The notes under the pieces are model-generated. The model saw nothing but the letters and a program-made list of their open reading frames with translations. It was not told where the DNA came from and did not search any database. A program made the position numbers and the translations under genes. Shown here piece after piece: positions 17,210 to 51,020 of a DNA stretch of 64,000 bases; within the stretch, counting starts at the first letter, position 1; each line of letters begins with the position of its first letter. Origin of the DNA: Pseudeuparius sepicola (lineage: Eukaryota; Arthropoda; Insecta; Coleoptera; Anthribidae); NCBI GenBank assembly GCA_963920635.1, contig OY987303.1, positions 20,748,175-20,812,174 of the forward strand, in the 5' to 3' direction.

Positions 17210-20200
17210 TATGTGCCTGCCCAAAACTACACTCGTTATAAAATACAAGAACTTAGTTTTAATCGATAATAATTTATCAAGGATAAAAGTTTCATGTTAC
17301 ATGCATGTGAAGCTTCATCGAATCACAATCAAAATAATCCTTAACGTCGAGCTTACTTTTTTGGTTATCTAAAGCTTCATTCCGCCAATCGCAAAAATAA
17401 TCGTGACAGAACGGTCCAAATCGACGCCGATTCGCTCCCGCCGGATTTCTGAGGTTGATTCGCGCCGACGGGCTCTCAGTTCACGTCTGAATCGATGCCA
17501 ATATTTTCGGCTTGTGGTTTAGCTTCATTATGCGAACGAAGGCGGCAGGAACAGACAAATATTTGTTAATTTGCCGTACATTAGCGGGAGGCATATGTTG
17601 ATATTTGCGGAGCAGTCGAACGACGAAATCCCTAGCCGTTCTACCAAAGCCACGTTCCTATTACTTAAATTAAATTATTGTACTTGAATGTGTATTGTAT
17701 AATGTGTGCTGCTGGTATAGGTACCTAGGTAATTAAAGTATAGGTAGGTTTTGCTATGCAAACAACTTAGTTCGCTTTCATAAAGCCTACAATATTAATT
17801 TTAATTAGAGAGTTATAACCAGCTATAATGATTTCGCTATTGACTGTCCACTGTAATTAATCAAAAATATTAACTTGCGAAAACTTCGAAATTAGACCCA
17901 TTCGCCTTTCTTTATCTTTTGAGTTCTGAAGCCTAATATCGCAGATTACACTGGCCGTAGGCTTCCTCATGAATGTAGGACAAACAAGAACTACTTCAGG
18001 CAATATGCTTAACATGATGCGATTGAAGTAACTTTATTTAAATGGCCACTAAATGTTTCATTAATTACAATAGGGAATTTGAACTTGCCTTATCTATAAG
18101 TACACACCACATTGGGCTTTCTCTATATGTTGTCAAGAGCTAGTAGTGCAGAGTAATGTTTCAATTTGGTATCGGCACAAAAGTTATTTCTTGTACCTAA
18201 TAGATGAAAGTAACAGTTACAATAAACGCCTACATAAACAATAGTTTACTAGACTGTTGCTTAAAAGTAAACTGAAGAAGTAGTATTTTTATTGTGCTTT
18301 ATTTTTAAAAGACTATAGGATTATATTGTTGTGATCCTAAACAAAAATCCGCAGTCTAAAAAATCCCTAATGAAACTTTACGAAACTTGAGCTTTTAACT
18401 GTGGTCGTAGTTGGCCATGATTACAATTCAAGAATAAAGTTTTCCGCCCATTGAATGCGCATTTTGAATACTTCCATACATATCTAACAAAAAATTGATC
18501 AAAATCGGTCAACAAATAACGATTTTACAAAGGTGGTAAGTTCTTAACGTGGATACACTGTATATCTACAAACAATATTACCGTTGACTGAAGGTTTAAA
18601 AAGACCTCTCACGGATCCAGATAAAATGCCGAGCGCTTTTGGAGGCGAAGGACTATGGATATTCGAACTTTTTCCAATGATCGTAGTCATTCGCCTCCGC
18701 GCACCAACTCCATCTACTGGTGTATAGCGGTATTATTATTTCTATTTAGCTCTCGTCCAGTACTACTGTTTAGCACCATCTATTTTCGATAATTACAATG
18801 ACTCTAACAAAATCGATAATTAGTGGTAGGTTTCGTACTCGACAATTTCGTATTCCAAAAGGCTCGTTTGTGTTCGGGGCGGGGCAAACAAGTCTAAAAA
18901 TAGACACGGGGGGAGAAGGGAGAAGGGGCCAGTGAAATAATTCTACGATTTGGCTTTTATAAAATTAGGAATAGATTCAGGGTTGGGCGTATTTCAGTTT
19001 GATATTTGACGATTTTAACGGATTGGCAGATTTTTAAAATTCTCTTTTTTAGGATATAGTGATCTACATTATGTTGCTTCAATTTCTTACGTTGATTTGA
19101 AAAACAAAACATATGTCCAAAATGAAAACTGAGAAAAGTGAAAAAACTGATTGCCTTCCTTCTATTAGGGAGTATTTTTTAATGTACCTAGGCGTTTTTC
19201 TGGAAAAATGTTGAATACAGAAAGAGGTTGTTATTTATTTTTATTTTTTTAGCTTAAGTAACTAATAAAAATATATACTGTGTGTCCGGCGATTCAGTGC
19301 CCAAGGGGTGTAAACGATAAAAAAATTCTAATTGTAAGTTGACATTCTGTTTGGTGTTGCCCCAATAATTGGCCGAACCTATCAGCAAAGTCTAGAGAAT
19401 ACTAGACTTTGCTATCAGTACACAGTGTATACAGGGTGTATTTTTGTCGAAAAAAAACAAGGCCGGAGTAAACTGTACCCTCAATTTTAAAAGCTAGCTA
19501 GCTAGGACGTTAAAACGATATTATTGCTTATATCTGCCAAACTATGATACCACACCACTTAATCAGTGGCGGCTCGTAACTATTTAAACTTAAACAGGCG
19601 GGGCCAAATATCGGAAGACATTTAAAAATCAATGTGCCTAACTAAACCGGTGTAAAGTTAGTAGCCGATTTTCTGGCAGCAAAAAATTTTCCTCGCCCTT
19701 ATTTCCACAAATTTATTTTGATAAAAATAAAGTAGAAAGGGTAACTATTATTAAACCTTCTAAGCAGATTAAACTGGAGAATGAAGAAAAATATTCATCA
19801 AAAAATAAAGATTGAAATTTTTGGCTCCTAGAAAATTGGCTGCTAAGTACTAAGTTCAGTTTTAAGTAGACACTTTTGTTGAATTTACGTGATCGCGTTT
19901 TTTATGTTCTGCCGTTTGATTTTTCTCTATAGTTAAATCAAGGTAACGGCCTGCCCTCTATAACTGTTTAATTTGCAGTTTTTGCTCAAATTACATTGAC
20001 GAAAATGAATTTCTTAATAAAAAAAACTAACACTGTTTTATGAAATGCTACTTTTATTAGTGATATAAACAAAAATAGTAAAAGTAGGTAAATAAGGATT
20101 TTTTAAACTGTTGACTATGTATGTACCTACATGTAGGAATTGAGATTTTTTAAGTAGGTATTGACTGAACACGCCAGAAAGTAATTACCCATTTTCAGTC

Positions 20201-20355
20201 AGAATTACCTTTGAACATTTTTTGACAGAGAGGAATAAAATAAAATAGTTAAATGAGAAAACACATTTATTAAAAAAACACCTAAATACCAAATCCAGAA
20301 ATATTGTCAACATAAATAAATTATATAAGTAAGAACATTTTAACGCATATACAAT
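17210..20355. other. No recognised gene; scattered repeat ends
   Basis: No coding similarity is seen. A more GC-rich stretch lies at 17400-17600. Isolated MITE-end sequences occur near 18545-18560 (GGATACACTGTATA), 19279 (ACTGTGTGTCCGGCG) and 19430 (TATACAGGGTGTA) without visible partners. A micro-palindrome lies at 19386-19411 (listed separately). Confidence 0.4.
19379..19418. repeat. Micro-palindrome with 7-bp direct repeats (i)
   Basis: CTATCAG (19379-19385) and CTATCAG (19412-19418) flank a 26-bp hairpin with arms CAAAGTCTAG and CTAGACTTTG. The same palindrome occurs at 42192-42218 between a different 7-bp repeat. Confidence 0.85.
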
Positions 20356-20360
20356 TATTA

Positions 20361-21236
20361 TACAGGGTGTCCAACTTTAAAACTGTACAAATCCGTAAAA
20401 TCTTCATTTTTAGAGATAAGAGCCTAAACTTTTTTTGTTTGAAAGGCCTTCAAAAACCGCTTCTTTTGACCTTCCTGCTATTATTAAAATGCAAATCCAG
20501 GGCCGGCTACCATTTTTTTATACCCCCAATTTTCTCGAAAACCATTTAGCGATTTTTTTATTTAAAATCTGACCCCACAGCGTTAATCAGAACACCCCAA
20601 AACCCCTATATACCAAATTTGAATAAAAAATATACAGGGAGTTCTATTCTGCAGGGTGTCAAATTTGAGCAAAATAGGAATTTTAAAGAAATACATTACT
20701 TTTGTGTTTATCAATATTTTTTCAATGATTCTACAGCACTCATGACCCATATAAAGTTTCATAAAAATTCAGCATTTTGAGATGGCACAGATAAGAATAC
20801 TCTGTATATTTTGTACTGGACCTTTGCACACCAATACCTTGAGTGGTCCTATAGACCATTGAACTGTTTTGAGGGGATTCCATGGCAATCTTGACTTGGC
20901 AGATACCTTTAAAAGTCCTATTTTGCTCAACTTTGACACCCTGCAGATTGGAACTCCCTGTATATTTTTTATTCAAATTTGGTGTAAAGGGGTTTTTGGG
21001 TGTTCTGATTAATGCTGTGGGGTCAGATTTTAAATAAAAAAATCGCTAAATGGTTTTCGTGAAAATCGAGGGTATAAAAAAAATCGCAGCCGGCCCTGGA
21101 TTTGCATTTTGAAAATGACGGGACGGTCAAAAGAAGCGGTTTTTGAAGGCCTTTTAAACAAAAAAAAGTTTGGGCGATTGTCTCCGAAAATGAAGATTTT
21201 ACGGATTTGTACAGTTTTAAAGTTGGACACACTGTA
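20361..21236. mobile_element. Foldback element, arms about 400 bp
   Basis: TACAGGGTGTCCAACTTTAA at the left returns inverted at the right end (TTAAAGTTGGACACACTGTA). Homology of the two halves extends over nearly the whole 876 bp, for example the matching GGTCAAAAGAAGCGG blocks. TA lies at the left edge. Open frames in the arms are mirror images of each other and not genes. A truncated relative lies at 17095-17207. Confidence 0.85.
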
Positions 21237-21239
21237 TGT

Positions 21240-22292
21240 TATTTGTTTTGGCAATAATAATAGTCCCCCACTAGTCAATAGTTTCACAATGTGTAAAAAG
21301 AGTTTCAAGGCTAAAAAAAATTCGAAGTCTCGCCCGCAGCTCTAGGGTTTACTATAGATCCCAACGTACCCGTTGAAAATAAACACCATCTATGGAGCTG
21401 GAAATATAAAATTTTGTGTCTGTATTTTCTGCTCGTGTGTGGTTGATGTAATATACGATTTCTATTAAAGGGAAAAGGATGGAATGATACCCCTGTTTAA
21501 TAAGTGTATTTGGGCGGGTCCTTTCCCCAAGTAAATTTCTGGTCGCGAAAGGGAGCAGTGAAAGGGGCAAATAATATTGTAATGAATCTCAAAAATCACA
21601 GTCCAAACTCGTTACCTTGGTTACCACCTTTATTGTTTAGCCTTCAAAAATCACAAATAAACTTGTCAGATTACTGTCACTGCCCAAGAATATTCTTTCA
21701 GCTCCAAAATTCGCACAAAATCGCTTTCTAACCTTTCACTTTCTCCAGGCCCAATTCCCAGGTCTTAATGTCAAGTAAAACCCTGTCAAAAGTCAAAATC
21801 AAGATATTGCCAGACTCGAAATGTCCCATCTGTAATTCCCACCGAGCTATCCCAGTATACCCCAGAAAACAGTGTGCAGTTTTCTAGACTTTGCTTTCGA
21901 GTCAGCGACACCGACTGTGAATAATTGTTACTTCCGCTAGCCGCAAGATGGCTCCGGCGAAAATGCCAGAAGATTTTCGATATCGATCCGCTTTAATTTC
22001 TGGTCCGGAATGTAGAGGGTGCCAGCGGGCTCCGGAGATGTTTTTAAATCGGCACGCTGTTCCATGGGCGTAGATTCTCTTTTTAAATCTTCACCCAACG
22101 ATATTACGTTCATTTTCTGTTAATTCAAATTTGTAGTTAGGTGGAAAACATCTAGGCTAGTTTGTGCAAACAATTTTTTATGGGATCCCAAATATTGAAA
22201 TATTAAAATAATATACAGCTAATTTGAATCAAGTTTAAATTACTCATGTTTCTCTATTTTCCCATTCCCTGGCGATATAACATATGAACATG
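21240..22292. other. No recognised gene
   Basis: No coding similarity or clear repeat is seen. 21870-22080 is somewhat GC-richer. Confidence 0.4.
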
Positions 22293-22296
22293 ACTA

Positions 22297-22657
22297 TACA
22301 GGATGTCCCAGATTAGATGGTTTTAGTATATCTTCTATTTCTCGAGGAAATAGATAAAAAGCAACAAAAGCGTAGTGTTTTTCGAAAAAAGTTGAATGCC
22401 GCAAATCTCATCCTGATATCCCAATTCCTTTAGGCGATAGGTAGGTACGATTCGTTTTGTGGAGTTTCTGTTTGTGAATATTTTCGATTTCTGTGAAAAC
22501 ATATCTGTTTATTTTTTACACAGAATTCATTGGCTTAGAGAGACTTTTTGTATAAAAGATTAAAAATTCCCAGATTTAAACCACAGGAATTTTTTCTTTA
22601 GAACCGCTAACCAAAAAATTTTTCAGGGGTGTTCCAGATCAAAATGAGACACCCTGT
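22297..22657. mobile_element. MITE with TACAGGATGTCCCA ends
   Basis: The left end TACAGGATGTCCCAGAT and the right end ATCAAAATGAGACACCCTGTA are imperfect inverted repeats about 360 bp apart. It is non-coding. Only the ends are clearly matched. Confidence 0.55.
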
Positions 22658-22659
22658 AT

Positions 22660-24250
22660 GAAGGCCTCGTTGATTCTCATCCTCACAATAATACTCCAAA
22701 CTAGGAGTATTCTACAAGCAACCAAATGCTTCTGCAGAGCAGGGGTGGCAATTACTATTATTTCGTCTTCATTGTCATTTGCGGCTAGGGCCGACTTTTT
22801 GCTGATAGAACTGGGATAGCATTGGCTACTGCGGAAAACCCTAAGAAATCGTAGTAATTCCAGTGACTGTAGGACAGTATTTTAGATCTAGGTGTTGAGA
22901 GGTAATTTTCTCGTTTTACGAGCTAAAGCGAAATAGTAAAATAAGAAGTAGGCTGATATCCTCCTACAGAGTTCGTTATTTTCGTTTGATGCAGCAACAA
23001 AGTCAACTAAGCCGCGGGCGCGTTTTCCCAGATCATAATCTGGAAAATAAATGCAAGTGAGGCGCCCGAACGTGCCGTTTTTTTCGGCGGGTATATATCC
23101 GGGGTTTACGGGCAATTTAAAACAGACAAATATTTTACTATCTTTATCGCGGGACCTCGGCCCCGTTTGCATAATGTCTGAAATTTTAATGAAATTGTAC
23201 CTTCGCGTTTTGTTTACGCTGCTCCTTCCAAACAGAAAATATATACGCAACTAAAAGCGTAATTAACCATGGGCATATTAATAGAGAGACCGCCGGCCGT
23301 TGTAAAATGCACCGTCGAATTTCCCTGAATAATTTGCACCGCTTACCACGGACAGAGGTAACACGATGTGACGTCACAGACGACAATGAGAATCCCTTCT
23401 TAAAATTTTACCTATATTATTTCTAGCCACGGAGAAGAAAGGTGGCTCATCTTGTCAAATCTTTCAACGCAGGAGCCAACTTTAAACGAAGATAATTAAT
23501 CTATTGTAGGTCTCTGTACGATAAAATTATCGCCTACCGCATTTAAATCTTACAGATGAATTATACGTTCAAAACCAAAAAAAAAGAATGCCTAATAGGT
23601 ATTGAGTAAAACATCACTGGTTTTCTTGAAACAGGGTGTCAAAATTTTGTCGAGCTCAATCCGTTCCATTTTGAAAGCGAACAATTTTTGGTACATTGTT
23701 CATAGGAAATTTTTTGTCACTAAATAATACAATTATTCTGTAAAATTTGAAAGCGGTAGTTGAAAATTCTATTTTTCGAACTTTGAAGTTAACAGGTGTT
23801 TTGTGACACATTTTGCCAATTTCAACGCAAACGATTGATTTCATCGTAATGGAACAAAAGCACCCTTTTGTTTCAAAATGAAAAGATGCACTAAAATGAT
23901 GAACCTGCAAGACCAAAAAGATAACCTCAAAAAAGTTATGAGTATAATACCCATTGAGCTACCCCGCCCCTCCGCCTCTGGGCGATGGGAATAAATTGTT
24001 TTTACACAAAATTATTGTACTTCAGTTACTAAAGGACTATGCACCAAATTTCATTTGAATTGTACAACTTCTGTAGAAATTTTGGCGAAAGCAAAAGAGT
24101 ATTTTCATACAAATTCGTACGATATTTTGATGCGACCAAACTACTTGGTACAAATTCTCATACAATGTACTTAAGTAACTATTACTATTGCCTTACTAAA
24201 TTGTCCGTGTGAGACAAAAACAAACTTCAAACGTTGCGACACAGCGATTT
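22660..24250. other. No recognised gene
   Basis: The minus-strand open frame 22888-23250 (120 codons) shows no recognisable domain and has no splice context I can support. An isolated repeat end (ACAGGGTGTCAAAATTTTGT) lies near 23632. Confidence 0.35.
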
Positions 24251-24256
24251 AGTTAG

Positions 24257-25234
24257 ATAGGCCTGTTCTCACAAACACCAGCAGGTCCCAACTAAGTCAG
24301 ACTCACTCAGCAGGCATCAAAACAATCAGAACAGTCAGATAATTTAAAATCTGTCAATCAGATTCGCGTCTGGTTTCTGATTTCGGTGAGAACAAACTCA
24401 TATCAACACATTCGATGAGTTGATAGGGGCTATCACCTGGGCTATCACACAGTACCTTTCATTTAATTTTAATCCATCTGACTTCACTATGAAATTTTAC
24501 TTTACATAACAACACCATTTTTACACTATCGGTCGATAGAATCACTTTTAACCTATTATACGCGCCACGCGTCACACGTCACAATTTGATTAGCTCCGTC
24601 GCGCAACACGTTCGACAAACGACTGACGCCATGGCTTCGATTTCCTAAGATTTTACACCCGTAACTGGCGAAATACCTTCCTCCTCTCATGTCCCTAACA
24701 CGAACTTGTGTCAATACACCACGTGGTGTGAACAAACACGAAGCCGTGTTAGAAATATAAAGAAATTACACCTCTAAAGTGTTAAAATTAACGAATTTGT
24801 TGTAGTGTGGATTTTACTAAATGAGGTCTGGTTAAGATATTTGGAATCCACCAATTTTCGTGTCAATTTTTCACCAAATTTCTTTCACCACCTACACGAA
24901 GAGGATTTACACCGATTTTTTTTACCGTGTGAAGGGGAAAGGGAAATACTCCATATCAGTTGAAAACCTGCGAGAAATGATCTGAAACAGGAGAATACGT
25001 TCCAATTGATCTGGTTCAATTAGATCAATAGGAACAGTATGAAAGAATATCAATATTAGGTATGTTGCAGCTGAACTTCAAACCGTTTGAAATCAGTTTG
25101 AAACTGTCATCAGGAGCATACGCAGTTTCGTTTCTGCAGGTTCTTCATTCAAAGGTTTCTACACCACCAAAATGAAACTACGCATGCTCCTGACAGTTTC
25201 AAACTGGTTTGAAATTCTGCCGAAACAGGCCTAT
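24257..25234. repeat. Probable inverted-repeat element with internal hairpins
   Basis: TAGGCCTGTT near 24258 and AACAGGCCTA near 25224-25234 are inverted. A strong inner hairpin lies at about 25078-25215 (AAACTGTCATCAGGAGCATA against its complement), and small hairpins around ACACCACGTGGTGT lie near 24716. No transposase is seen. The outer boundary pairing is short, so the extent is uncertain. Confidence 0.45.
24429..24447. repeat. Minimal 7-bp repeat pair around CCTGG
   Basis: GCTATCA, CCTGG, GCTATCA: the same layout as the micro-palindromes, with the smallest possible C-to-G palindrome. On its own it could be chance. Confidence 0.4.
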
Positions 25235-25239
25235 TATTA

Positions 25240-26840
25240 TTATCTGTCAACAATAAAAAGGGCCTGCGTTTGAGTTGACTCTTATCCTCCGAATTGCCAT
25301 AGATTCCCGTCGATTCCAAACTATAGGAAAATAAACGAAATATCCGGAGAGGACTAGTGGAAAGAAGGGAAAACCCTCTTTCTCGACGAATTTCAAGGCG
25401 GAAAAAAGGAGGAACTCCCGTAGCGGCGCAGAGGGGCAATCGTCCCGATAGATAACCGCTCTAGGGGTGGAAGGGCTCCGGCCATTTAAAATCACGATAT
25501 CGCCCCTTCAGTCAACTCACTTAGGAGCGCGCTTTGGCTGCTCGTATGGCCAGAGACGGCATCGGCGCGGAGAAATTCTCGTTTAATGAGAGTATCATAT
25601 GAAGTTAGTTGAACATACGCTAGTGTACTGAAATGAACTGTTTATTGGCTTGATCTGACAAGGTATTTTACTTATGTAGGGGTTATTTTGAAATGATATT
25701 ACAAATACAAATAACAGATAATACTTATAACAGGTACATAACACTAAATCTATTTTACTTAATTTGAGAACATCCACAACCTTCTCAAGGTTACAAGCCC
25801 TGTGCAAACATGTTGCAACGCCGCAGCGGGGCGGTTCAACGGGTCTATGCCGTATAGAGCAGTCTGCACTTTGGCTTAGTTTATCTTTTCTATAATAGAT
25901 CTTCAACCCTCTTTTAAATTATAATTAAATACTTACTACATTTTTGAACTTTGTTTCAATAATTGGGTACCTAAGTAAGTAGGTTGTTTAACAGACAATA
26001 AAAGTACTAACAAGTAACAAAATATACACAGAAGTATAAGTATTTATAATAAGAACGATTCTTGGTGTGGATAAATACATTTTCGAGAAATAATATGGTA
26101 AATTTGGGCAAATATCTGGCACTAAATTTTGTTGTATGTCGAATTTTTAGCAAAGTGCGCGATCAGCCAACTGATCTATATCTTCCCTTATGGTTACATT
26201 TTCATCAAAATACAAACAAGCGAACAGAGAACAGCATGTTGTGAAGGAGAGTAATCTCTTCTGACTGAAATGGCAGTTAGGGTCAATTTCATAATACATT
26301 CAACTAAATTATCTTTTGACTTTAACATTAGGTAAAGAAACTTTTGCAACAATACTAAATAATGGTTGGATTGTTAGAAAGCTCCTTTAATTTTAAAGGG
26401 TACTTTAGTTTGCCTATGCAATTGGACCTTAATCATTTTATTATTTAATTTTCGTCCTTTGGAAAGCCCAAAATGAATACAAGTTGACCGCTTGTCGTCA
26501 ACCAAAGAGAACCTAGCTACTTCAAGTTATTATTACGATTTGACTTACAGCCAGGTATACATATAACTAAGTTCTAGCTTCCCTCGACGGTTCTAAGCAT
26601 CTTGAGGCTTGAAATTGTAAAGGAACGATTCTTCACTTCGAACTTTTATAGAAATGTTTCACTTTTGCACCAACAAAGCAAATTTATAAAAAAAACTGTC
26701 GCCAGCACTTCGGTCTGTCTGTTTCCACCAAGAGACACACTGCCTCGTCGTAGCAATCTGGCGACGATAGCACTACCCGCACTACACAAATTAATTCTGG
26801 TTAAATTTCTTGTAAAATCAACTGACAGGCAGTGTCAGAG
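25240..26840. other. No recognised gene
   Basis: A GC-richer stretch lies at 25260-25590 and AT-rich DNA follows. Open frames on both strands carry no recognisable motif. Confidence 0.35.
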
Positions 26841-26844
26841 CACG

Positions 26845-27690
26845 CGACGTGGACCGGCACCGTCGCAATGATAAAGGCCTGCCAGCTGGCGACGCGAAAC
26901 GTCACTACGTCATCACAGGGAGGTCGGGAGGTTGCTTTTTGAAGTTGTTTACGTTTACTTGTCTGGCGATTTTTCTGTTTTAAAGAACGTTTGTTGTGTG
27001 TTGGACTGTGTTTTTTAGTAATATAGGACGTGGAGTTTTATTAATAAGGTGGTAAAACAGCAGTGGTTCAGAATAAAGTTATTCAAGTTCAATTTTAGTT
27101 TATAGGTTTTAAGTTGTGTCTATAGTTTCGGGCTAATTTAAATCATGCCGGGGACGTGTTCCGTTCCCAACTGCAAGGGAAACTACAAAGGCGGTCCTAA
27201 TGTGTCCGCTTTTCCTCTATAAAGACCCCATTTTAAGGGAAAAGTGGGGTAAGGCCATCAAAAGAGATTTTGTTCCTACACAGTGTTCCAGGATTTTGGT
27301 TTGGACTGTTGGAGAGTGTTATACCTAACAATTTTACGTGATTAAACGTAACCACCTTGAAATCAGTAAGTTTTATGGTTTTATTTATTCGAATTTAGTT
27401 GTATCTAGGCAGGCAAATAATAAATAATTGGCATTTACGAAAATTTTACCGGTAGATCTCTAAATGCACCAAAACCCCTTGAAAATGTGAGTTTCACTCT
27501 CGTAGATTATTATCCGTGTTGTAAAATCATGAGCTATATATGTAAACAATCATTTTAAAGTGTTTTTTTACCAAATTTACCAAGTTGACACCTTGAAATT
27601 TGAATTTGGCGCCTTAGGTTCACCTCCCTTGGATGACTCATCGCTTTCAGCTGGCGGGCCTTGTTATTGCGACGGTGCCGCGTGGACCCG
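26845..27690. mobile_element. Inverted-repeat element enclosing a THAP relic
   Basis: Sequence at 26845-26927 (GGCACCGTCGCAAT, then GGCC(T/C)GCCAGCTG and AGGGAGG) returns inverted at 27622-27690. Arms are about 70-80 bp. Between them lies a leader and a THAP-type coding fragment followed by GTAAGT. THAP domains are the DNA-binding domain of P-element transposases and of host THAP proteins, so the inverted repeats favour a transposon origin. No catalytic part is present. Confidence 0.55.
27145..27330 (+). pseudogene. THAP zinc-finger domain remnant
   Basis: The fragment starts at an ATG at 27145 with MPGTCSVPNCKGNYKGGPNV, that is C-x4-C followed by the NYK and SAFP pattern of THAP domains. 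After a one-base frameshift near 27220 it continues YKDPILREKWGKAIKRDF, matching the F-P-x-(D)-x-x-L-R-x-x-W-x-x-A-I-x-R block, and then a Cys near TQCSRI. The final C-x2-H pair is not recognisable. A splice-donor-like CAGTAAGT lies at about 27366. The domain would bind DNA in the nucleus but is broken here. Confidence 0.65.
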
Positions 27691-27863
27691 CATCCCTGGT
27701 TACCAGTTTTCTCTACTTCAGGGCTTCTCCTAGAGTCGGCTGTGGAACATCCTTCTTTCTTTCCGCAAATCTTATATTTTCTCAAATTAGGACATTATAT
27801 TTAACGAAAACCCATACCAGATCAGTATTCCGAAAATACTCATTTTAGACGGTAAGCCTAAAT

Positions 27864-29766: not shown

Positions 29767-29767
29767 T

Positions 29768-31200: not shown

Positions 31201-31209
31201 TTTAATCAA

Positions 31210-32200: not shown

Positions 32201-32204
32201 TTGT

Positions 32205-32255
32205 GTTTGACCATTGAGTAAAGGAATAATTTATTCATTTACTCAATGGTTTGAC
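32205..32255. repeat. Micro-palindrome with 7-bp direct repeats (v)
   Basis: GTTTGAC (32205-32211) and GTTTGAC (32249-32255) flank a 37-bp hairpin with arms CATTGAGTAAA and TTTACTCAATG. Confidence 0.85.
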
Positions 32256-32679: not shown

Positions 32680-32756
32680 GTATAAGCACAGACCTATATA
32701 GTAGCGAAGCTATGTAGGTCTGTGGTATAAGCAGTGACTATAGACACTGGTATAAG
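32680..32756. repeat. Two adjacent micro-palindromes sharing 7-bp repeats (iii)
   Basis: GTATAAG occurs at 32680-32686, 32725-32731 and 32750-32756. Between the first two lies a 38-bp hairpin with arms CACAGACCTA and TAGGTCTGTG. Between the last two lies the 18-bp palindrome CAGTGACTATAGACACTG. Confidence 0.85.
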
Positions 32757-40449: not shown

Positions 40450-40800
40450 AACTTTTTAAAAACAAGCTTTAATTTAAGCCATGAACTGAAACGAATAAAG
40501 TAAGTTTAGGTTTTCGTTAAGATAATTCAATGCCACACTGCGGCAAGCTTTTCTAAATCAAAAAGCTCGTGGCGCGAGATGGACATAAAAGTAGGTACCA
40601 ATTAATTTTATCGGACAGTTGATAAGCAAGTACATGCTAAAGAATATATTTTCTTTACAGTTTGCGCGACAAGCTTTTTGATTTAAAAAAGCTTATCGCA
40701 GCTTGGCATTGAATTATCTTAACGAAAACCTAAACTTATTTTATCCGTTTTAGTAAATGGCTTACTTAAATAAAAGCTTGTTTTTAAAAAGGTTTTTTTA
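40450..40800. repeat. Hairpin element
   Basis: AAGTTTAGGTTTTCGTTAAG and neighbouring sequence at the left is complementary to 40700-40795 on the right. Outer ends read AAAAACAAGCTTTAATTTAAG and the complement with AATAAAAGCTTG. It resembles the hairpin around the gypsy insertion at 51153-57510, whose ends also carry AATAAAAGCTT, and both are followed by similar CRE-containing repeats. Confidence 0.7.
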
Positions 40801-40859
40801 TTATTGATTTTATTTTGTGCTTTTTTAGTAGGTACCTATTTGGTTCCCATTTCGGAAGG

Positions 40860-41120
40860 GTGGTAAAGAAATTTAATCTGCCCTCTTGGGGCATCGGGCA
40901 TCCGCCCTATTGGATTTAGTATGACGTCACTCACCTGATCGTTTTCTACTCTTCAAATTCTTTCATTTGATACCCATGTCGAGGATACGGTTGTGAAGAA
41001 TTAGGCAATCCGCCGTCTTGGGGAGGCCGCCATATTAGATTTATTATGACGTCATTCACCTTATTGTTTTCTACCCGTCGAGCCCTTTCGTTTCATACCC
41101 ATGTTGAGAATTATTTCCCC
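40860..41120 (+). repeat. Two-copy repeat with TGACGTCA
   Basis: CCGCC(C/A)TATT(G/A)GATTTA followed by TATGACGTCA(C/T)TCACCT occurs twice about 120 bp apart. It is related to the three-copy array at 57636-57992. Confidence 0.6.
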
Positions 41121-42184
41121 TCTGGTGGTAAAGGTATCTTTTACCGTGCCCCGAACTAGGTACGCCTATGTACTTACGCATGATATGTAACCTCCTTTGG
41201 CGAGATGCTTGATTTGCAAACAATACACTTTTTTGCCCATAACGTATAACTTAATTGTCTATATAAGCATTTTAAACCGACGAACACTTAAGAAACGCTT
41301 AAAAACAGCGAAAAATTGCTTCTAAAAGACACAGCACCAGTTGTGTCAAACACAAGGTGAGGCACACTCTTGACCGATTTGCGCGTTTGTCAGATTGTGC
41401 GATTGGTATTGGTAATTGTAGGTACCTATATTATTGTTTCCTTAGTTGTATCACAGATTAAAGTACTACACGTAGTATAGAAATACTGCCTAATAAGTGT
41501 CTAGATAATAATTATAAATACTAGATTCACCTATTAGTCATGCAGACCTTATCTCATAAATACATAAATAACATATAGGTATTATCTACCATTATTTACT
41601 TCAAAGCAAACGTATTTGCAACTGATTGGGTATGTCCCTAGTCCCTACATACAACGGAAACCACTGTTGAAGATTATTTTAATTATTACTAGAGAAATAA
41701 GTTTTTCATTATGAATTATTGGCAACGCTGTTAAACTTTAACTAGTAAATAAATAATAGAGTATAAAAAGTGCTACCCCTTACAAACATTTCAATCTACA
41801 GATGCCATTTCTATGTTTTTTATTTTTCTGAGGTTACAATGTATTTTAAATATATTATTTATTATATTTTGTCCATATTTTGTGTAATTCAAAGTTTGTC
41901 CTCGATAGGACCCCTCAGCTCCGTGGTCAGCTATATAAACTTAGGTTAACTGACTCATAGATGGTGCCAGCTTCGCTACATACAGCAGCTTGCTTTTAGT
42001 GCATCAGATGATGAATATAGAGTGCAGTGCTTTTGTGCAGTTATGACAGTTTTCGGGTAAAAAGGTATGTTTTTTGCAAAGGCCATCATCAACAACCATG
42101 GCTTATCAAATCCGTGACCTCCCTAATTAATTAATGACAGTTATTATTCACTAACATCGTTAGTATTTAGTAGTAAAACAAAGC

Positions 42185-42225
42185 CCAATACCAAAGTCTA
42201 GAGAATCTCTAGACTTTGCCAATAC
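42185..42225. repeat. Micro-palindrome with 7-bp direct repeats (ii)
   Basis: CCAATAC (42185-42191) and CCAATAC (42219-42225) flank a 27-bp hairpin with arms CAAAGTCTAGAG and CTCTAGACTTTG. It has the same arms as the insert at 19386-19411. Confidence 0.85.
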
Positions 42226-42899
42226 TGTGCTCCAAGTTACAAGAAATATGGTTTAAAAACGGTGGCTAAAAATTGCGGGAAATATAAAATTCTCAACTCT
42301 GTGGTTCTCAGCTCCGTTACTGTTTATTGCCACGGAGCTGAGAATTGATCACGGAGTTGATATATTTTGCTCAACATGTTAGACCTATGTGAAAATCACA
42401 GGGATTATTTTTCTGTGTGTGGAGGTTAAAAAAACTGACACTAAAAAAATGCATTTCCAGTTCATTATGGTAAAATCAAATTCTGTTTTTTAATATCAGC
42501 TCTGTGATGACTTCTCAGCTCCATGGCATTAAAAAATAAAAAGCCTAGGTATATAAGAAGCATGCAAACTATTTTTTGTTAGTGTAGTCGAAGTACACAG
42601 GGTGTAATTATTTTTGTAGCAACATTTATTTGTGTTTGTTTGGAAGTTACACATAGTTATTTTAGGTAAAATGCTAATTTTATCAGCTCCGTGATACGGC
42701 TGTCAACTCCGTGGTATTCAGAAATAAAAAAAAACGTGTTTTTTTATGACATTACATATTTGGGAGGTGGGAAAATGTTATTTTTCGTTTAATTTTGACT
42801 TTCTAATAATAATAAAAAAAATAAAGGTTATTACGTAACATTTGTATTTGTCCAATTGTGTCCTCGAAATATGAACACTTCTGGAGAATGACCCGTATA

Positions 42900-43730
42900 C
42901 GTTGATTATTTGAAGAGTTTTTTTGTTTTTCATATTTTATTTACCAAATAAATAATTAAATATTTGTTTTTAATGTTCCACTTTATATTGCACCACGCCA
43001 CTGGACTCCTGTAATAAATTTCTGAGAGGTCGGAATCAATATACCTTTTACTATGGTACTTACTGCTAGCAGGACTCTGTCGTCCTCTTTGAAGGACAAA
43101 TGCATTTGCGGAACTAAGTCCTTCTAGCAGGACCTAGTCCCGGTACAAAAGTACTTCCGGAGGAGCTTCCAGCAGGACAACCTCTTGTACGTTCTATCAT
43201 TAAAAGTTCTGTTTTCAGTTTTAGTTACTTTAATAGTTTTAGAAGTTAACTAAGTAGGTATAATAGTTAGGTACTTCAACGTTGAAATACAAATAACCGC
43301 TGACAAAGAAACAGAACAAAACTCTGGGAGTTTATAAGATTTATGTTTGCAACGTCGCAAAGCCCAATGAACAGTAAATGGATCGGGCGGGCCGAGCTGC
43401 AAAGAAATTATCTAGAATAACTCTAAGCCATCGCTCAAACTGAACAAAGAGAGCATGCTGCAATAAGTGTTACAGCGTTCTGCGAAGTGCCGGTGTGTTT
43501 TGAACGTGTAAATTTGGCCGCAGCGAAGATGGATGGACGGCGGGGACAGCAATTTAGAAAAGACCGTCGTCAGTCAATTTCCTTTTTGTACTGACCTGGC
43601 CGCCCTACACGCTGAGGCGACTTTTGCTATTAGTTCCTGAAAAACGGGTAGGAAACTTTTGGGGTAAAGGAGATGAGAAAACAGCTATTGTCATTCCAAG
43701 GGCGGAAAATGTACAGTGGGTCTAGTTTTT
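42900..43730. other. No recognised gene
   Basis: 43060-43205 contains several CAGGAC/GTCCTG blocks and resembles, inverted, part of 35030-35120. The rest shows no similarity. Confidence 0.4.
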
Positions 43731-43955
43731 CGTGTTAACACCCCTAGCAATCTAAGAAGGCTGTGGGAATTGAAGTGGACAATTTTTTTATAAATCTGTC
43801 CCTAAAAGGTCATCGTTTTCAAAATATTGGTTTAGCATTGCAAAATACTTATGTAGCAATTATTTTGGTGAAAAAATATAGAATCATTATTTTTCTGAGC
43901 GATGCTTTTGAAAAAGTGAATACAAACTTTTTTGTGACGCTATTGAACCTTATAC

Positions 43956-44512
43956 AGTGTGTTCTATAGAAAGCCGTGTCAGACATAACTTATGTTTTTT
44001 TATGGAACACCTTGTATATTTCTGGATTATTGAATTCTACTCATTTTTATTATGACAGGCCGGAAAATGTAGAAACACTGGAAGGTAGAATTTGGGAAGA
44101 AATCCACATATTAAATAATACTGAACACAGCAATTTTATCGCTGACTCAATGAACAGGAAGTTAGTAGGTACCTAGCCAATATCAATAAATGCATTGAGC
44201 AAGATGGGGGCCATGTGGAGCATTTGTAGTATGTATATCCTTTTTCTAAATGTTATTGTCATTTTCAGTAAAAATTAAATTTCAAACAATAAATCTGGCG
44301 AAGTTTATTAACTATATTACTATTTAAAATTTCCCATTTCTCTTAATTTCCCTTAAAAAATAAGAAAGTTTTTCCTATTCAACACCTTTTCTGTGGACAT
44401 ACTTTATACTACGTTAGAGTCGGAAAAATTCGTAGAATTCAATAATCCAAAAATATACAAGGTGTTCCATTAAAAAAAATTTCTGCTCTTGCTTTCTAGA
44501 ACACACTGTATA
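43956..44512 (+). mobile_element. Mariner relic with transposase C-terminus
   Basis: The ends TACAGTGTGTTCTA and TAGAACACACTGTA are inverted, and weaker inverted homology continues outward for about 35-60 bp on both sides. Inside, 44055-44176 translates as RPENVETLEGRIWEEI and SMNRKL. After a frameshift, 44185-44228 gives NKCIEQDGGHVEHL, the closing motif of mariner-type transposases (C-I-x-x-x-G-G-H-x-E-H-L). The catalytic part is lost, so this is a deletion derivative. Confidence 0.75.
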
Positions 44513-45173
44513 AGGTCCAATAGAGTCACAAAAAACTTTGTATTAGTATCTAAAACTTTTGTGATAAACTTTTTTTCTAACTTCAAAAACTAACAAGTTA
44601 AGGGGGGGGGGGTGTCAATTTTTAGTGCACAAACGAAATAAAGGTTTGTAAAAAATATAAAATAACTTTTAAAACATAACATTTCAATGGAGGATGCGTG
44701 AAAAATGAAGTGCGTTTGGTTTGTTTAAACTTATATAAAATACAATTATGTGTTCACTCTACGGGGTAGTTCACTGGAAGCTGTGTTCACTAAATCGCGA
44801 CTCTACTGTAATTAAAATTCGTTGTATGAATCTAGGATGCTTTGAAATCAAAAACAAATAACGCAAGGAACATCAGCAAATATGTCAAAAAAGTTTTAGT
44901 GCAAATGAGAGGAATAATTTCTGTTTGGACGTCGCTCTTTAAAAATTTAGACCATTTCGCTAAAACTTCTGCAATTATTTTCATATAATAATAATTCTAA
45001 TAATTTATATCTCCTATTACAGTCTGCGCGCTCTAATTTTGCACTCGAAAACCTCAGTTTAACCGCTGCAAAATAAGCAAATGTGATAATCTACGAATAT
45101 ATTTTACATCAATGAAGTACAATAACGGGTATTTCAGCCAAAATTATACCTATATTATTTATTCTTTACAATG

Positions 45174-45213
45174 AACCAAGCTTTCGGCTATATTTTTGGC
45201 CTTCGTCAGGGCT
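45174..45213 (-). ncRNA. Hammerhead ribozyme motif in left Penelope arm
   Basis: Minus strand: AGCC stem I, core CTGACGA, stem II GGCC/AGCC with one mismatch, GAAA, AGCT, cleavage-site T, then GGTT (stem I with one wobble). It is the diverged partner of the motif at 46773-46812. Confidence 0.65.
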
Positions 45214-45735
45214 AAAATAGTGTTAGGTAAAATATATTATTGAGTAAGAATTATTTATATACTTACTATTGAGATGAATATTAAATAGTTATGGTTTTAA
45301 TGGATATAAACTTCAAAAATGGAATAAAGTGTTATGTAAATATTTTTGTTGTTGTCTACTGAAAATTTTGTAATAGATATTTATAGTTGATATAAAAATT
45401 TGAAATAAAAGAAAATCTTCATATTTTGAAGCAAGTCATGAAAAACAAATGATAGCGCAGACAGGAATATTGTTTTAAGGTTATAAAAATTTTAGGTTAT
45501 AAAAATTTGTAGGTTACCAAAAAGTTTGACAATAAACAAAAGAAATCTAAATTTAAGGTTGTTTGTCAAAAAGGTTAGAAAATATTTGCCAATAAAAATG
45601 TTTAGTTTGAAAACCGAAAACTTGGGAAATATAGATATAGGGTAGTATGATTTTACAGACAAATTTTTATATAAATATAGTGTTATTATGAGTTATTTTG
45701 ATTGTTTTTCATCTAAAAGTAAAATATAAGAGTAC

Positions 45736-46194
45736 CTAAATACAACTTAGATCTTCTATATCAGTTCTTTTGTTCATTGGATAATTTTCTTTATTAATTT
45801 CAAACATCTCAAGGAATAACCTCTTAGTTAGATTCTTTTCTCTGTGTAAAATTTTAAAATTGTAAAAATTTGCATGATAGCCTGTGATATTTATATGTTC
45901 AGAAAAAGCAGAAGAAATTTTATTTAATTTAACATCACTTTTGTGTCCTGAAATTCTATTATATAAATTTTGGGAAGTTTGGCCTATGTATTTTTTATTG
46001 CAATTATAACAAGGGATCGAACACACAACATTAGATTCACACATTATTGGAGTTTTATTTTTTAATTTAGTGTATAATTTTCCGATTTGTTTAACATCCC
46101 AAAATTTATATAATAGAATTTCAGGACACAAAAGTGATGTTAAATTAAATAAAATTTCTTCTGCTTTTTCTGAACATAATATATATAATATCAC
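45736..46194 (-). pseudogene. Penelope-like GIY-YIG endonuclease domain
   Basis: This 152-codon frame shows the complete GIY-YIG order: VVCSIPCYNCNKKYIGQTSQ (with the conserved Cys pair typical of Penelope-like elements), NRISGHKSDV with the catalytic Arg, SEHINITGYH with the His, then FKILHREKNLTKRLFLEMFE with the conserved Glu, and NKRTDIEDLS with the terminal Asn. It ends naturally. The reverse transcriptase upstream is absent, since the frame begins where the inverted copy starts, so the element is 5'-truncated. The domain itself appears intact. A second, frame-broken copy of its last two thirds lies at 46102-46320 on the plus strand. Confidence 0.85.
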
Positions 46195-46772
46195 AGGCCA
46201 TCATGCAAATTTTAACAATGTTAAAATTTTACACCTTCCTTCCTTGAGATGTTTGAAATTAATAAAGAAAATTATCCAATGAACAAAAGAACTGATATAG
46301 AAGATCTAAGATGTATTTACTCTTATATTTTACTTTTAGATGAAAAACAATCAAAATAACTCACTATAACCCTATATTTATATAAAAATTTGTCTGTAAA
46401 ATCATTGTATACTACCCTATATCTATATTTCCCAAGTTTTCGGTTTTCAAACTAAACATTTTTATTCGCAAATATTTTCTATTCTTTTTGACAAATAACC
46501 TAAAATTTAGATTTCTTTTGTTTATTGTCAAACTTTTTGGTGACCTAAAAATTATTATAACCTAAAATTTTTATAACCTTAAAACAATATTACTCTCTGC
46601 TATCATTTGTTTTTCATGACTTGCTTCATAATATGAAGATTATCTTTTATTTCAAATTTCTATAACAACTATAAATATTTATTACAAAATTTTCAGTAGA
46701 CAACAACAAAAATATTTACATAACACTTTATTCCATTCTTACTCAATAATATATTTTACCTAACACTATTTT

Positions 46773-46812
46773 AGCCCTGACGAAGGCCAAAAATATGGCC
46801 GAAAGCTTGGCT
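46773..46812 (+). ncRNA. Hammerhead ribozyme motif in right Penelope arm
   Basis: Stem I AGCC/GGCT (46773-46776 and 46809-46812), core CTGACGA (46777-46783), stem II GGCC/GGCC (46785-46788 and 46797-46800), GAAA (46801-46804), self-complementary AGCT as stem III, cleavage-site T at 46808 (NUH). All required core bases are present. Confidence 0.75.
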
Positions 46813-47249
46813 CATTGTAAAGAATAAATAATATATAATTTTGGCTGAAATACCCGTTATTGTACTTCATTGATATATAAATACAGCCATTATTAAAAAA
46901 GATCTATTATAATATATTTTACAATTAAAACCTTTCACAAGTTATATCTGAATATTAATGTATTCTTTGAGCGTCGTTTGTGTTTTCTTTCTTAGCACCG
47001 TAGATTCGTACCACGAATTTAAATTATTAACTTTTTCAAAGTTTAGCACCACACGGAAAAATAACGAATGGATATTTTTCACCGAATCTGTTTTGAGGGA
47101 AGAAAAAACCGCAGAATGCAGAATAGATATTATAATGCCAAATCAATAATACTTCGCAAACGATGACCTATCAGGGTGTATCGATAAAAAAATTGTCTCG
47201 TTCAATTCCCACAGACTACTTAGATTTATATGGGTGTTAACACTTAGCG

Positions 47250-49600
47250 CACCATACTTGATTGTAGTTAATAATTATAAACAATATTCGAAAATAATAA
47301 TATTTATCATCTAATTTTTCGCGATAAAGTAAGTACTAAAGTAGTGTTACAACAAACTGGCCATATTTTTAAATAGTTCACTGATCCTAACAATGTGTTC
47401 AGTCACCCTATATAATTAATTATAATAAATAATATAATATAATAAATAATAATTCTCAACCTCACAAAATACTCCAAACTAGGATATAGGCTCGTATTAG
47501 TGCGTGAAATGGCTATTTCCTGCCCGATAATGGAAATATATATTTTTAGTAGCATCAAAAATTATCGTATGGACGATATTCTCCTTGAATTGAAAGAGAC
47601 TCTTAACCGCAATAGCAGTTTGGGTGGAAGAAAATGTTATTGGAATATAACCGATCGTTTTATAGGTCGTAAAGCGATGATAAAACATAAAATCACCATA
47701 AAATATATGTCATATACGTGGGACATTACTTCGTAAAAGGCTACTTAGTCCTACTTTACACAAAATTGCATTCAATTGGCTCAATTCTCGTGGTTTTATT
47801 TCAAGCATTACATTTGCCGCACTAGGGGAACACGGTGCTAGGATAAGCGCGATTTTTGAGACCGTACAAAATTCTTTTCTTGGTAGAGTAATAATATTTA
47901 GCACGTAGGGGTGTTATGTTCCCAAGGAGTAAAACTCGCACACGCTAATAACAAAGTTAATGTTATGACGGGAAGGGAAGAAGAAGGAAATAATCATAAA
48001 AGGCGTTAACTGGACTGGAATACTTTCTACACTTTATACACCTCTTCTTACGACGACGGAAAGATCTTAGGTAGAGCATGGGCGGAACACACACATATAG
48101 GTCTTACCACTTCATTTTTTAACACAAATAGAACTGACACCTTGCTTTAAAATTCCCCTTTCTAATCATGTTTATTTTTGCATATCAATAATTGTAGTAA
48201 CAATATAATTGTAACACAATCATGTTGTGATCATGCTGGCAAAAAATAGGCAAAGAGTAAGTCATTACCCACTATACCCACCTAAGTTGGGTCCATATAT
48301 CGAACACTAGCAATTTTAGTAAAAAACTGAATAAATCACTGAATTCTACGCGAAAATATCTATAAGAAACAGTTTCTGCCATTTCAATATCATTAACCGT
48401 TCCCAAAATACGAGGTAAGTATGCCCCAAAAGCGCAAATTTTAAATTTCGCCCTGTATCTTAAAAACAAAGGTGGCTATGAAAAATCTGTTTACGGTATC
48501 TTTCGTTTCACAAAAAAGTAGCACCGGTTCGCGAAAACCGCAACTCCCTATCTCTAAAAATAACCGAGATACCCCCCATTTACAACCAAATCTGGACACC
48601 CTGTACAGTAAATGTATATAATTGTCTTTCTATTCGTTCTTTCAATTTCAATCTTATTATTTATTATTAATAGTGCGATGAGATCATTCAAAACAAGGTT
48701 TTGACACCTAAAATATAGGCGAACATCAATACACTATTGCTACTTTTGCAGCCTAGGAAAGTACGTAATAATATTAATAAACTAATTTGTAGGTGCGTCC
48801 GTTTCTACGCCCATGAATCAGGTAAGCCGCATTTCCTCGCCTGAAGTGCCTAAGCTATAGTGTCTTTCCAACATAAATTAAAACATAACACCAGTATTTT
48901 ATTAAGAATTCTCTCAAACTTTACTAGTGCCATAAAATTTGTAGGGAAAGGCTTTGGTGAAAACCCTAAAAAAACAAAAATTGAATTTACTTTGGAATTA
49001 GTTTACACAAAAAATATAGACGCTGGATCGTGGTATCTACTGCTTACTTACTGTTTAAAATAATTAACTTTATTACACCGAAAAATGTACAGAGGGTGCA
49101 TGCTCAATGAGGGCTTAATTCACTCTTACAAGATGTCTTGTTTCCAGAGGTACCCAAACTAATTGCTATTTACTCTCTTTTGAGTAAATTTCAAGGAAAG
49201 AAAACAAGAAATGACTGTTTTTTACCACCCGATTTAGCGTCGGCTGTATGCGCTTGAATTTGCAATAGTTAGCGCAAGTGGTCGACGATGTTGTGGCTTC
49301 GTGCACCGCCTGTTTCCCTGGCACCGTTTTGTGCACTGAATAAATAAGACTATTGACGTCTATGGCTTAGTGTTCGGCTCCCCGATCTGTTATAACAGTA
49401 TGATTTTTAATGAAGGTATGGAAAAATCATTAATTCGGTATCTTATGGCAAAATTGTAAAAATCACCTACCTTCATTTTCCAAGATATGAAAAAGGCCAC
49501 TAAAAAAATTGTTTAGAGTGCAATTTTACACCCCATACCAAATTTCAGGACATTTTTAAAGTTATTATAAATTATATACAACGAATACCACATAAACAGT
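47250..49600. other. No recognised gene
   Basis: Short open frames on both strands carry no recognisable domains. A dispersed repeat lies at 48410-48605 (below). Confidence 0.4.
48410..48605. repeat. Copy of a dispersed repeat (shared with 30.9 kb)
   Basis: It ends in GGACACCCTGTAC and matches 30860-31200 in inverse orientation, including CGAAAACCGCAACT and CCTATCTCTAAAAATA. Confidence 0.55.
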
Positions 49601-49629
49601 ATAACAAATAATAAACATCAATCCTTACA

Positions 49630-50878
49630 AGGACTCATATAGAAAGACATAAAATAATATCACAAAAACAATCAGGAATAAGATCTGGCTACTCCTGCAC
49701 TACAGCACTGGCCAACATAACAGATAACATTTTTAAATGAATTATTGACAATAATGAAATCTGTGCTCTAATTGTGCTTGACTAGCAAAGCTTGTGATAT
49801 GCTTAACCATAAAATCGTGCTTCCTATCTGACACTTTGTAGGCTTTGAGGCCAGAGCTTCCGCATTCTTGGAATCATATCTTGATGATAGAAAACAGATA
49901 GTCAGACTAAATAGAAACTTTTCTGATGTGGGGTCGATAAAACAGGGAGTCCTACAAGGCAGCATATTAGGGCGTTTGTTGTTTACCCTGTAGGTATAGT
50001 TGCAACATTTATACTGCACTTAACCACAGGAATATCATCTATACGAGATGACACCCAGCTGTATCATAGATTTAAAGTTTCTCAACTTTAAGATGCATTA
50101 ATTAAAATCACTAGTGATTTAGACCCAATTTTGAAATTGGCATCTGGCCATCAATTAAAATTTAATGGTAGCAAGTCCTGTTTCATATTTTTCGGTAATG
50201 AGAGTGCTAGAACTTCCATTGTCAATGACTGCAAATTTGATGGGAAGGTAATTCGTGTCTCTGATAGATGCAAGAGTCTGGGGTTAACGTTGGATTCGAG
50301 GTTAAGATTTAAGGAACATATCTCCTCTGTGTTAAAAAATCATATTCTTCACTGAAATTAATATTTGCACAGGGGTGTTTTCTTGATTGGGAGACTCTAA
50401 GAGGGTGCTATGTGATTTGCTTGTTCTCTCACATTTAAATCAAGGAGACTGTGTGTATGGGCCCTGCCTTGATCAAGTGGACCTGGGGAGGGTTCAAAAG
50501 GTCCAGAACAGCTGCCTGAGATTAATATATTATGGGATTTGTCGCCCCAACGGAATTTCACACAAAGGACATAAACTGGCTAAGTATGTTCAATCGTAGG
50601 AAGTTACATATATGGCTTGCTTTTACTATAAAATATTGAAGTATAAGTCACCGCTCTATCTGTATCGCAGATTAATATTTCGTACTGACATCCACAATTT
50701 GCATTTTAGACAAAATTCTTTCCAGTTCCTCAACATAAAAAAAGAGATCTTTAAGAGGTCATTCTCTTACAATGTTTCGACTTGCGATGAAATTGTGGCT
50801 GATCCTCTGCTTTCTTTGTCAATTGTTAAATTAAGGTCCAGTTGTAGGAAAACACTGTTTCAACGAGAAAGTTGTTAA
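49630..50878 (+). pseudogene. LINE reverse transcriptase, heavily broken
   Basis: The recognisable order is: SQKQSGIRSGYSCTTALANI (49645-49720), ICALIVLD with stops (the first catalytic block), FLESYLDDRKQIVRLN (49870-49920), VGSIKQGVLQGSILG (49928-49972), and RDDTQLYHRF (50050-50080) in place of the usual ADDT, preceded by shifted sequence. The frame 50131-50355 continues with LKFNGSKSCFIFFG and KSLGLTLDSRLRFKEHI. Frames 50387-50599 and 50612-50878 give the C-terminal part (VQKVQNSCLRLIYY, YKILKYKSPLYL, KRSFSYNV). Many stops and shifts show long decay. Confidence 0.75.
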
Positions 50879-50983
50879 TTTTTGTTTACATGGAAAAATT
50901 AGACTTTTTTTGTTATAAGGGAATGTAAATAGCTACAATGTTATTTGGCTGTGGAAATTATCGGAATTAATCTGTATGTTGCA

Positions 50984-51020
50984 CTATTAGCCCAGAAAAA
51001 GACTTTTTCTGGGCTATTAG
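50984..51020. repeat. Micro-palindrome with 7-bp direct repeats (iv)
   Basis: CTATTAG (50984-50990) and CTATTAG (51014-51020) flank a 23-bp hairpin, arms CCCAGAAAAAG and CTTTTTCTGGG with a single central A. It sits in the 3' UTR of the LINE relic and so postdates it. Confidence 0.85.

What the first reader, a model, noticed from the sequence alone, without database searches (positions are those of the whole stretch)
19379..51020. Micro-palindromes flanked by exact 7-bp direct repeats: a possible undescribed class of tiny insertions
Five loci (19379-19418, 32205-32255, 32680-32756, 42185-42225, 50984-51020) carry hairpins of 18-38 bp, each starting with C and ending with G and each bounded by an identical 7-bp direct repeat (CTATCAG, GTTTGAC, GTATAAG, CCAATAC, CTATTAG). 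The repeats differ between loci, as target duplications should. Two loci share the same palindrome arms (CAAAGTCTAG) between different duplications, so a specific sequence seems to have moved. A single random 7-bp flank match has probability 4^-7. Explanations: (a) miniature inserts moved by an enzyme that makes a 7-bp stagger; (b) hairpin-derived excision or repair scars at 7-bp staggered breaks. The constant C...G ends and the shared palindrome favour (a), though differing palindromes at other loci leave (b) open.
Basis: partly seen in the sequence, partly recalled or inferred. Interest (0 to 1): 0.92.

Follow-up and report, generated by a model that had tools for sequence, protein, structure and literature searches.

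The report
Palindromic scars of departed P-type transposons
The tiny hairpins between 7-base repeats are most likely scars left when larger jumping genes of the P-element type cut themselves out, and they are so frequent in this probably insect genome that they could serve as a record of how broken DNA was mended in its ancestors.

Summary
The window holds six palindromes between exact 7-bp direct repeats; the 32680 locus is a double. In 283 kb of this genome, C..G palindromes with exact flanks number 30 at 7 bp, 4 at 6 bp and 7 at 8 bp, with a shuffled mean of 0 at 7 bp (17 of the 30 are the family used to choose regions). Two arm sequences were counted in the whole 769-Mb genome: 1076 and 613 palindromes, reversed controls 0. 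For the first family, transposons with the same end exist (476 + 469 ends); 14 of 17 paired copies have exact 7-bp duplications. The 50 listed scars keep at most 20 nt of an end that continues further in those copies. Scars and intact elements share a target near STAWTAS, like Galileo's GTANTAC. P-type transposase domains are abundant in the genome. Best reading: excision footprints of P-superfamily transposons, made by a long staggered cut and end joining, not self-moving micro-inserts. No transposase was tied to these ends, and no site was seen in both full and scar state; one search for such a pair found none.

The parts
19379..19418 (.). Footprint of family A: CTATCAG + 26-bp palindrome (arms CAAAGTCTAG) + CTATCAG
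   Evidence: copied with its host repeat: a pattern over its left junction has 107 + 101 matches at up to 3 mismatches; every listed row has 3 mismatches, which is what this footprint form gives, and the 5 printed strings are that form
32205..32255 (.). Footprint: GTTTGAC + 37-bp imperfect palindrome (arms CATTGAGTAAA) + GTTTGAC
32680..32731 (.). Footprint: GTATAAG + 38-bp imperfect palindrome (arms CACAGACCTA) + GTATAAG; left half of a double
32725..32756 (.). Footprint: GTATAAG + 18-bp palindrome (arms CAGTG, then an A/A mismatch) + GTATAAG; right half of the double, sharing the middle GTATAAG
   Evidence: a longer palindrome with arms CAGTGACTATAG has 613 genome-wide matches; this short one is not itself among them
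42185..42225 (.). Footprint of family A: CCAATAC + 27-bp palindrome (arms CAAAGTCTAGAGA) + CCAATAC
50984..51020 (.). Footprint: CTATTAG + 23-bp palindrome (arms CCCAGAAAAAG) + CTATTAG
2863..3137 (.). Intact small element, 261 bp between 7-bp duplications CTAAAAC, ends CACAGAAAATATA; footprints at L005:5086 and L015:2950 share its first 13 nt on one side and 10-12 on the other, then differ
18575..22107 (.). Element of about 3.5 kb between 7-bp repeats ATATTAC, ends CGTTGACTGAAG / CGTTGGGTGAAG (2 mismatches); longest stop-to-stop frame 103 codons; it carries the 19379 footprint inside it
   Evidence: other copies begin at the same left end with different 7-bp flanks (L003, L010, L014, L017, L020); their right ends were not checked

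Best explanation
The palindromes are excision footprints of P-superfamily (Galileo-like) cut-and-paste transposons and their small non-autonomous derivatives. An element inserts and duplicates a 7-bp target close to STAWTAS. On excision the transposase cuts one strand at the element's tip and the other about 17-20 nt inside the terminal inverted repeat. Each side of the break keeps the duplication plus a single-stranded tail of repeat sequence. The two tails are inverted copies of each other. After trimming, short pairing or filling, and end joining, what remains is duplication + repeat end + reversed repeat end + duplication, which is a palindrome. Shown, for the CAAAGTCTAG family: 7-bp duplications, intact elements with the same end, a 20-nt limit on the end left behind in the 50 listed places, and variable junctions with microhomology or filler. 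Shown more widely: a common target motif, empty sites for two palindromes of other families, and P-type transposase domains in the genome. Inferred: the order of events at each site, the polarity of the cut, which transposase did it, and that the other families behave like this one.
For: Intact ends CAAAGTCTAGAGAATACTATAAGTC: 476 on + and 469 on -, control 0. Seventeen facing pairs of 247-3042 bp were fetched: 14 of 17 have exact 7-bp duplications (9 of 12 if the six copies of one repeated site count once). Against this end, the 50 listed footprints have a longer arm of at most 20 nt (13 of 50 at 20) and a shorter arm of 10-16 (10 of the 50 are one repeated form). In 34 independent events, 29 have no filler; the least end length needed is 17 nt in 13, 19 in 6, 20 in 2 and 16 or less in 8. 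Microhomology of 3 or more: 8 of 34, against 8% of simulated random joins. Target motif shared by 35 footprint and 14 intact-element sites; Galileo GTANTAC / GTATTAC in passages. Paralogous empty sites: L015:4809-5105, L010:9626-9992, L009:9007-9403. P-type RNase H domain PF21787: 1302 first-look candidates, 150 scored and reported, the listed rows all over the cut-off, 27 of them (my count) in frames of 650-866 codons; 0 of 14 control genomes (what those controls are is not stated). The P element cuts 17 bp inside its 31-bp repeat.
Against: No transposase was tied to any of these ends. Frames were printed for three of the 17 family-A elements and for a 5.4-kb one, and none looks P-type by eye; 27 selected frames (of window and held loci) run against Pfam gave no P-type family, while 106 frames of 110 codons or more exist in the sequence examined. 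No site was seen in both the full and the footprint state. At one repeated site, found through its intact copies, no footprint of 7-37 bp with exact flanks exists. At the 19379 site no listed match is better than the footprint form. Outside the CAAAGTCTAG family the match between footprint and intact end stops at 10-14 nt. Several arms start CG, CT or CC. Microhomology of 1 or more (22 of 34) is only modestly above random joins (49%). The 5 filler events could in part be point mutations. In reporter assays P-type excision also made flanking deletions; the scans here demand intact flanks and cannot see such events.
Confidence: 0.79

Rival explanations
1. The palindromes are minimal transposons of 18-40 bp that move as such, recognised in trans by a transposase that binds their ends.
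For: Identical palindromes sit at different duplications: the 33-bp form at 7 independent sites. Empty sites show net insertion with a 7-bp duplication. No footprint was found at a site known to carry the full element.
Against: 21 different forms among 34 independent events, differing at the centre and not the ends; the kept end is at most 20 nt in the 50 listed places while intact copies continue; larger elements with the same end and targets exist. The recurrent 33-bp form is one that 3-nt microhomology predicts.
Confidence: 0.06
2. Internal deletions of full elements by slippage or aborted repair, not transposase excision.
For: Gives the same duplication-end-end-duplication layout; P-type elements are known to suffer internal deletions (recalled).
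Against: Deletion junctions should be spread along the element. In the 50 listed places none keeps more than 20 nt on one side, although the pattern allowed up to 30. Limit of this test: remnants longer than 40 bp in all were not searched for.
Confidence: 0.05
3. They are excision footprints, but of another superfamily with about 7-bp duplications (for example Dada) or of an undescribed one with a long stagger.
For: No transposase was tied to the ends; Dada makes 6-7 bp duplications (passages of PMC3706591).
Against: The Dada elements in the passages read have no terminal inverted repeats and target small-RNA genes. The target motif and the long kept end fit P, and P-type transposase domains are abundant in the genome.
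Confidence: 0.1
4. Chance palindromes with chance flanking repeats.
For: None beyond the small number in one window.
Against: 1076 and 613 matches against controls of 0; 30 against a mean of 0 in the k=7 C..G scan.
Confidence: 0.001

Closest known systems
Galileo (P superfamily, Drosophila)
   Same: 7-bp target duplications with a palindromic consensus: GTAGTAC in D. buzzatii (passages of PMC2775673), GTANTAC over six genomes and GTATTAC in D. willistoni (passages of PMC4168063)
   Different: Galileo has long, internally repetitive terminal repeats; family A ends here agree for about 36-38 nt with six mismatches allowed. The word footprint does not occur in PMC4168063.
P element (Drosophila melanogaster)
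   Same: 31-bp terminal repeat cut 17 bp inside on one strand, leaving 17-nt single-stranded extensions; donor break repaired by recombination or end joining (section 7 of PMC7776569)
   Different: 8-bp duplication, here 7 bp. Here 8 of 29 filler-free events need more than 17 nt of end, up to 20.
Mariner/Stowaway and Ac/Ds excision footprints
   Same: Scars that keep the duplication with bits of the element (Mariner/Stowaway) or that are palindromes (Ac/Ds) (passages of PMC4561436)
   Different: In those passages the Mariner remnants are short, and the Ac/Ds palindromes come from flanking DNA, not from the element end.

Membership tests
P superfamily (Galileo/1360/P) | Target duplication of 7-8 bp | tested here: met
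   14 of 17 intact family-A pairs exact, 9 of 12 distinct sites; 38 of 45 footprint places exact, 45 of 45 within one mismatch
P superfamily (Galileo/1360/P) | Palindromic target motif like GTANTAC | tested here: met
   49 sites, counted on both strands (which forces symmetry): position 2 T 87%, 3 A 71%, 5 T 71%, 6 A 87%, first base C or G 76%; a few sites are copies of one repeat. Galileo passages
P superfamily (Galileo/1360/P) | Terminal inverted repeats, usually starting CA (recalled) | tested here: inconclusive
   Family A has them and starts CA; other arms start CG, CT or CC
P superfamily (Galileo/1360/P) | Long staggered cut leaving about 17 nt of the repeat at the donor | tested here: inconclusive
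   Indirect and for family A only: kept end never above 20 nt in 50 listed places; least length needed 17 nt in 13 of 29; polarity cannot be seen in sequence
P superfamily (Galileo/1360/P) | P-type transposase encoded between these ends | tested here: inconclusive
P superfamily (Galileo/1360/P) | THAP domain and GTP-dependent activity | not tested
   no transposase sequence could be read
Dada superfamily | No terminal inverted repeats; insertion into small-RNA genes | tested here: not met
   Terminal repeats present in family A; sites dispersed with an STAWTAS motif; Dada features from passages. Whether any site lies in a small-RNA gene was not searched
   21 different forms in 34 independent events of one family

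The most novel reading that the evidence does not exclude
A P-like transposon lineage has left tens of thousands of fixed palindromic scars in one genome, so that scars rival or outnumber surviving copies. Its transposase may cut 19-20 nt rather than 17 nt inside the end. Such scars would be a genome-wide archive of germline end joining, and they also act as fresh targets: elements land in their duplications or centres (window 32680; L012:4994-5040; L015:2934-3010).
Probability: 0.45. Interest if true: 0.65.

Novelty: new variant of a known kind. Interest (0 to 1): 0.5.

Why it matters
Many transposon scars are only a few bases long and hard to recognise later. These are long, palindromic and bracketed by a 7-bp duplication, so they can be counted and sorted by family in an assembled genome. 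That makes the excision history of a transposon lineage, and the balance of microhomology, trimming and filler in germline break repair, measurable from sequence alone. It also warns that repeat annotation may list such palindromes as unknown micro-elements.

Tried and rejected
Chance origin: rejected by shuffles and reversed-pattern controls. Autonomous micro-inserts: not favoured, because centres vary while ends stay fixed. Simple internal deletion: not favoured, because kept ends stop at 20 nt in the 50 listed places, but remnants over 40 bp were not searched. Full and footprint states at one repeated site: the GTATTAC site of L040-L045 gave 0 footprints with exact flanks; the CTATCAG site gave 208 matches, every listed row at 3 mismatches, the 5 printed strings being the footprint. 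Transposase beside the ends: 27 selected frames scanned gave reverse transcriptase and other retrotransposon domains, GIY-YIG, mariner-type and MADF matches, no P-type. By eye, no family-A end listed lies within 10 kb of a P-type domain listed on contig C1; both lists are partial, so this says little. Naming the host: the three first named relatives of a mariner-type protein of the window are from weevils; other named ones are from whitefly, ants, wasp and bee, so this only suggests an insect.
Full report
What is there. The place at 32680 is a double: GTATAAG, a 38-bp palindrome, GTATAAG, an 18-bp palindrome, GTATAAG. So the window has six palindromes with exact 7-bp flanks. In the window the scan with exact arms of 8 or more finds 5 at k=7, 1 at k=6 and 0 at k=8, against 0, 1, 0 at k=7 in three shuffles. 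In 283 kb of this genome the C..G count is 4 at k=6, 30 at k=7 and 7 at k=8, with a Markov mean of 0 at k=7. Of those 30, 17 are the family used to choose the regions and 13 are other sequences.

The host. The window lies at G000:C6:20748175-20812174 in a 769,049,646-bp assembly of 16 contigs. It holds retrotransposon frames (Ty3-type by my reading of the domains), a DDE_3 frame and a GIY-YIG frame. The first three named relatives of the DDE_3 protein are from weevils, so an insect is likely; the species is not known to me.

Families. Palindromes with arms CAAAGTCTAG (family A) number 1076 genome-wide, control 0. Palindromes with arms CAGTGACTATAG, related to the right half of the 32680 double, number 613, control 0, and those listed are 25-43 bp long (almost none of their letters were shown). 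Not all are separate events. The 19379 footprint sits inside a repeated element of about 3.5 kb, and a pattern over its left junction has 208 matches, so about a fifth of the 1076 are probably copies of that one scar. Of 45 held places of family A, 34 are independent by target and flank.

Intact relatives. The end CAAAGTCTAGAGAATACTATAAGTC occurs 476 times on + and 469 on -, control 0. I fetched 17 facing pairs of 247-3042 bp. Fourteen have exact 7-bp duplications, and the two ends agree for about 36-38 nt before a seventh mismatch. Six of the 17 are copies of one repeated site, L040-L045, so 9 of 12 distinct sites are exact. In the window, 2863-3137 is an intact 261-bp element with CTAAAAC duplications, and 18575-22107 is an element with ATATTAC at both ends. 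L009:3243-3435 and L017:7847-8658 are further candidates. Footprints that share the first 10-14 nt with three of these ends occur in held loci, but beyond that they differ; a full match between footprint and intact end was shown for family A only.

Why scars. First, the ends are constant and the centre varies: 21 forms in 34 independent events. Second, the kept part of the end stops: among 50 listed places the longer arm is at most 20 nt, although intact ends go on with AAGTC and the pattern allowed up to 30 nt on one side. Palindromes over 40 bp were outside that pattern. Among 29 events without filler the least length needed is 17 nt in 13, 19 in 6, 20 in 2 and 16 or less in 8. Third, 8 of 34 junctions show 3-nt microhomology, against 8% of simulated random joins; for 1 nt or more the figures are 22 of 34 against 49%; 5 of 34 have filler or point changes. 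Fourth, empty sites exist: the tandem copy at L015:4809-5105 has one GTAGTAT where L015:2950 has the scar, and L010:9626-9992 and L009:9007-9403 lack the scar of L014:2912 and have one 7-mer, each with one difference. Empty sites show insertion; they do not by themselves separate scars from micro-inserts.

Which enzyme. The 49 target sites, 35 of footprints and 14 of intact elements, fit an STAWTAS motif; they were counted on both strands, which forces symmetry. Galileo of the P superfamily has 7-bp duplications with GTAGTAC, GTANTAC or GTATTAC (passages). The P element cuts 17 bp inside its 31-bp repeat on one strand (section 7 of PMC7776569). The genome has 1302 first-look candidates for the P-type RNase H domain; 150 were scored and reported, the listed rows all over the cut-off, 27 of them by my count in frames of 650-866 codons. 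None of 14 control genomes rings, but what those are is not stated. I could not read DNA around the hits, so the link between transposase and ends is inferred.

Against the reading. No site was seen in both states. The repeated GTATTAC site gave no footprint of 7-37 bp with exact flanks. Frames printed for three of the 17 elements and the 5.4-kb one look non-P by eye, and 27 selected frames gave no P-type domain. Arms starting CG, CT or CC are unusual for the group as I recall it. In reporter assays with P-type transposases, excision also caused flanking deletions (section 6 of PMC10983969); scans that demand intact flanks miss such events.

Nesting. New insertions seem to use old scars: the 32680 double; L012, where a family-A right end, GTAGTAT, a family-A scar and GTAGTAT follow each other (no left end was found by exact search in the 12 kb held upstream); and L015:2934-3010, a scar inside a scar. 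That P elements insert into each other's target duplications is recalled, not looked up.

Density. Outside the window, 12 palindromes other than family A were found in 219 kb, two of which (L022:4966, L024:4399) may be chance. Scaled to 769 Mb this is about 42,000 (35,000 without those two). It is a rough figure: all 219 kb are from the first 14 Mb of contig C1, and the regions were chosen around family-A palindromes or ends.

Literature. Eight searches listed no paper on a genome-wide set of palindromic P-type excision scars; I saw listings, passages of PMC2775673, PMC4168063, PMC4561436, PMC3706591, PMC7776569 and PMC10983969, and one whole section each of the last two. Subscription journals are missing from that library.

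Odds.

Noticed in passing
L021:2533-4446: Tandem units of about 900 bp between GTAATAC copies; two end in a family-A end, the second and a third begin CACAGAAAACC, the first begins 43 nt further in; a MADF-domain frame lies in the first and a near-identical frame in the second. Possibly a chimeric element array.
   Followed up: partly
L049 and L052, right flanks: After the right duplication of two intact family-A elements the sequence begins CACAGA, as if a second element starts there.
   Followed up: no
G000, hits: Dozens of P-type transposase domains with the same score (118.7 bits), most in open frames of about 180-320 codons, suggest recent amplification of one lineage.
   Followed up: no
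window:4475-5910, 45102-46880, 20340-21257: Long inverted repeats, fold-back-like; the last lies inside the 18575-22107 element.
   Followed up: no
window:13003-13994: CTTGA-rich palindromic repeats, two similar copies about 920 bp apart.
   Followed up: no
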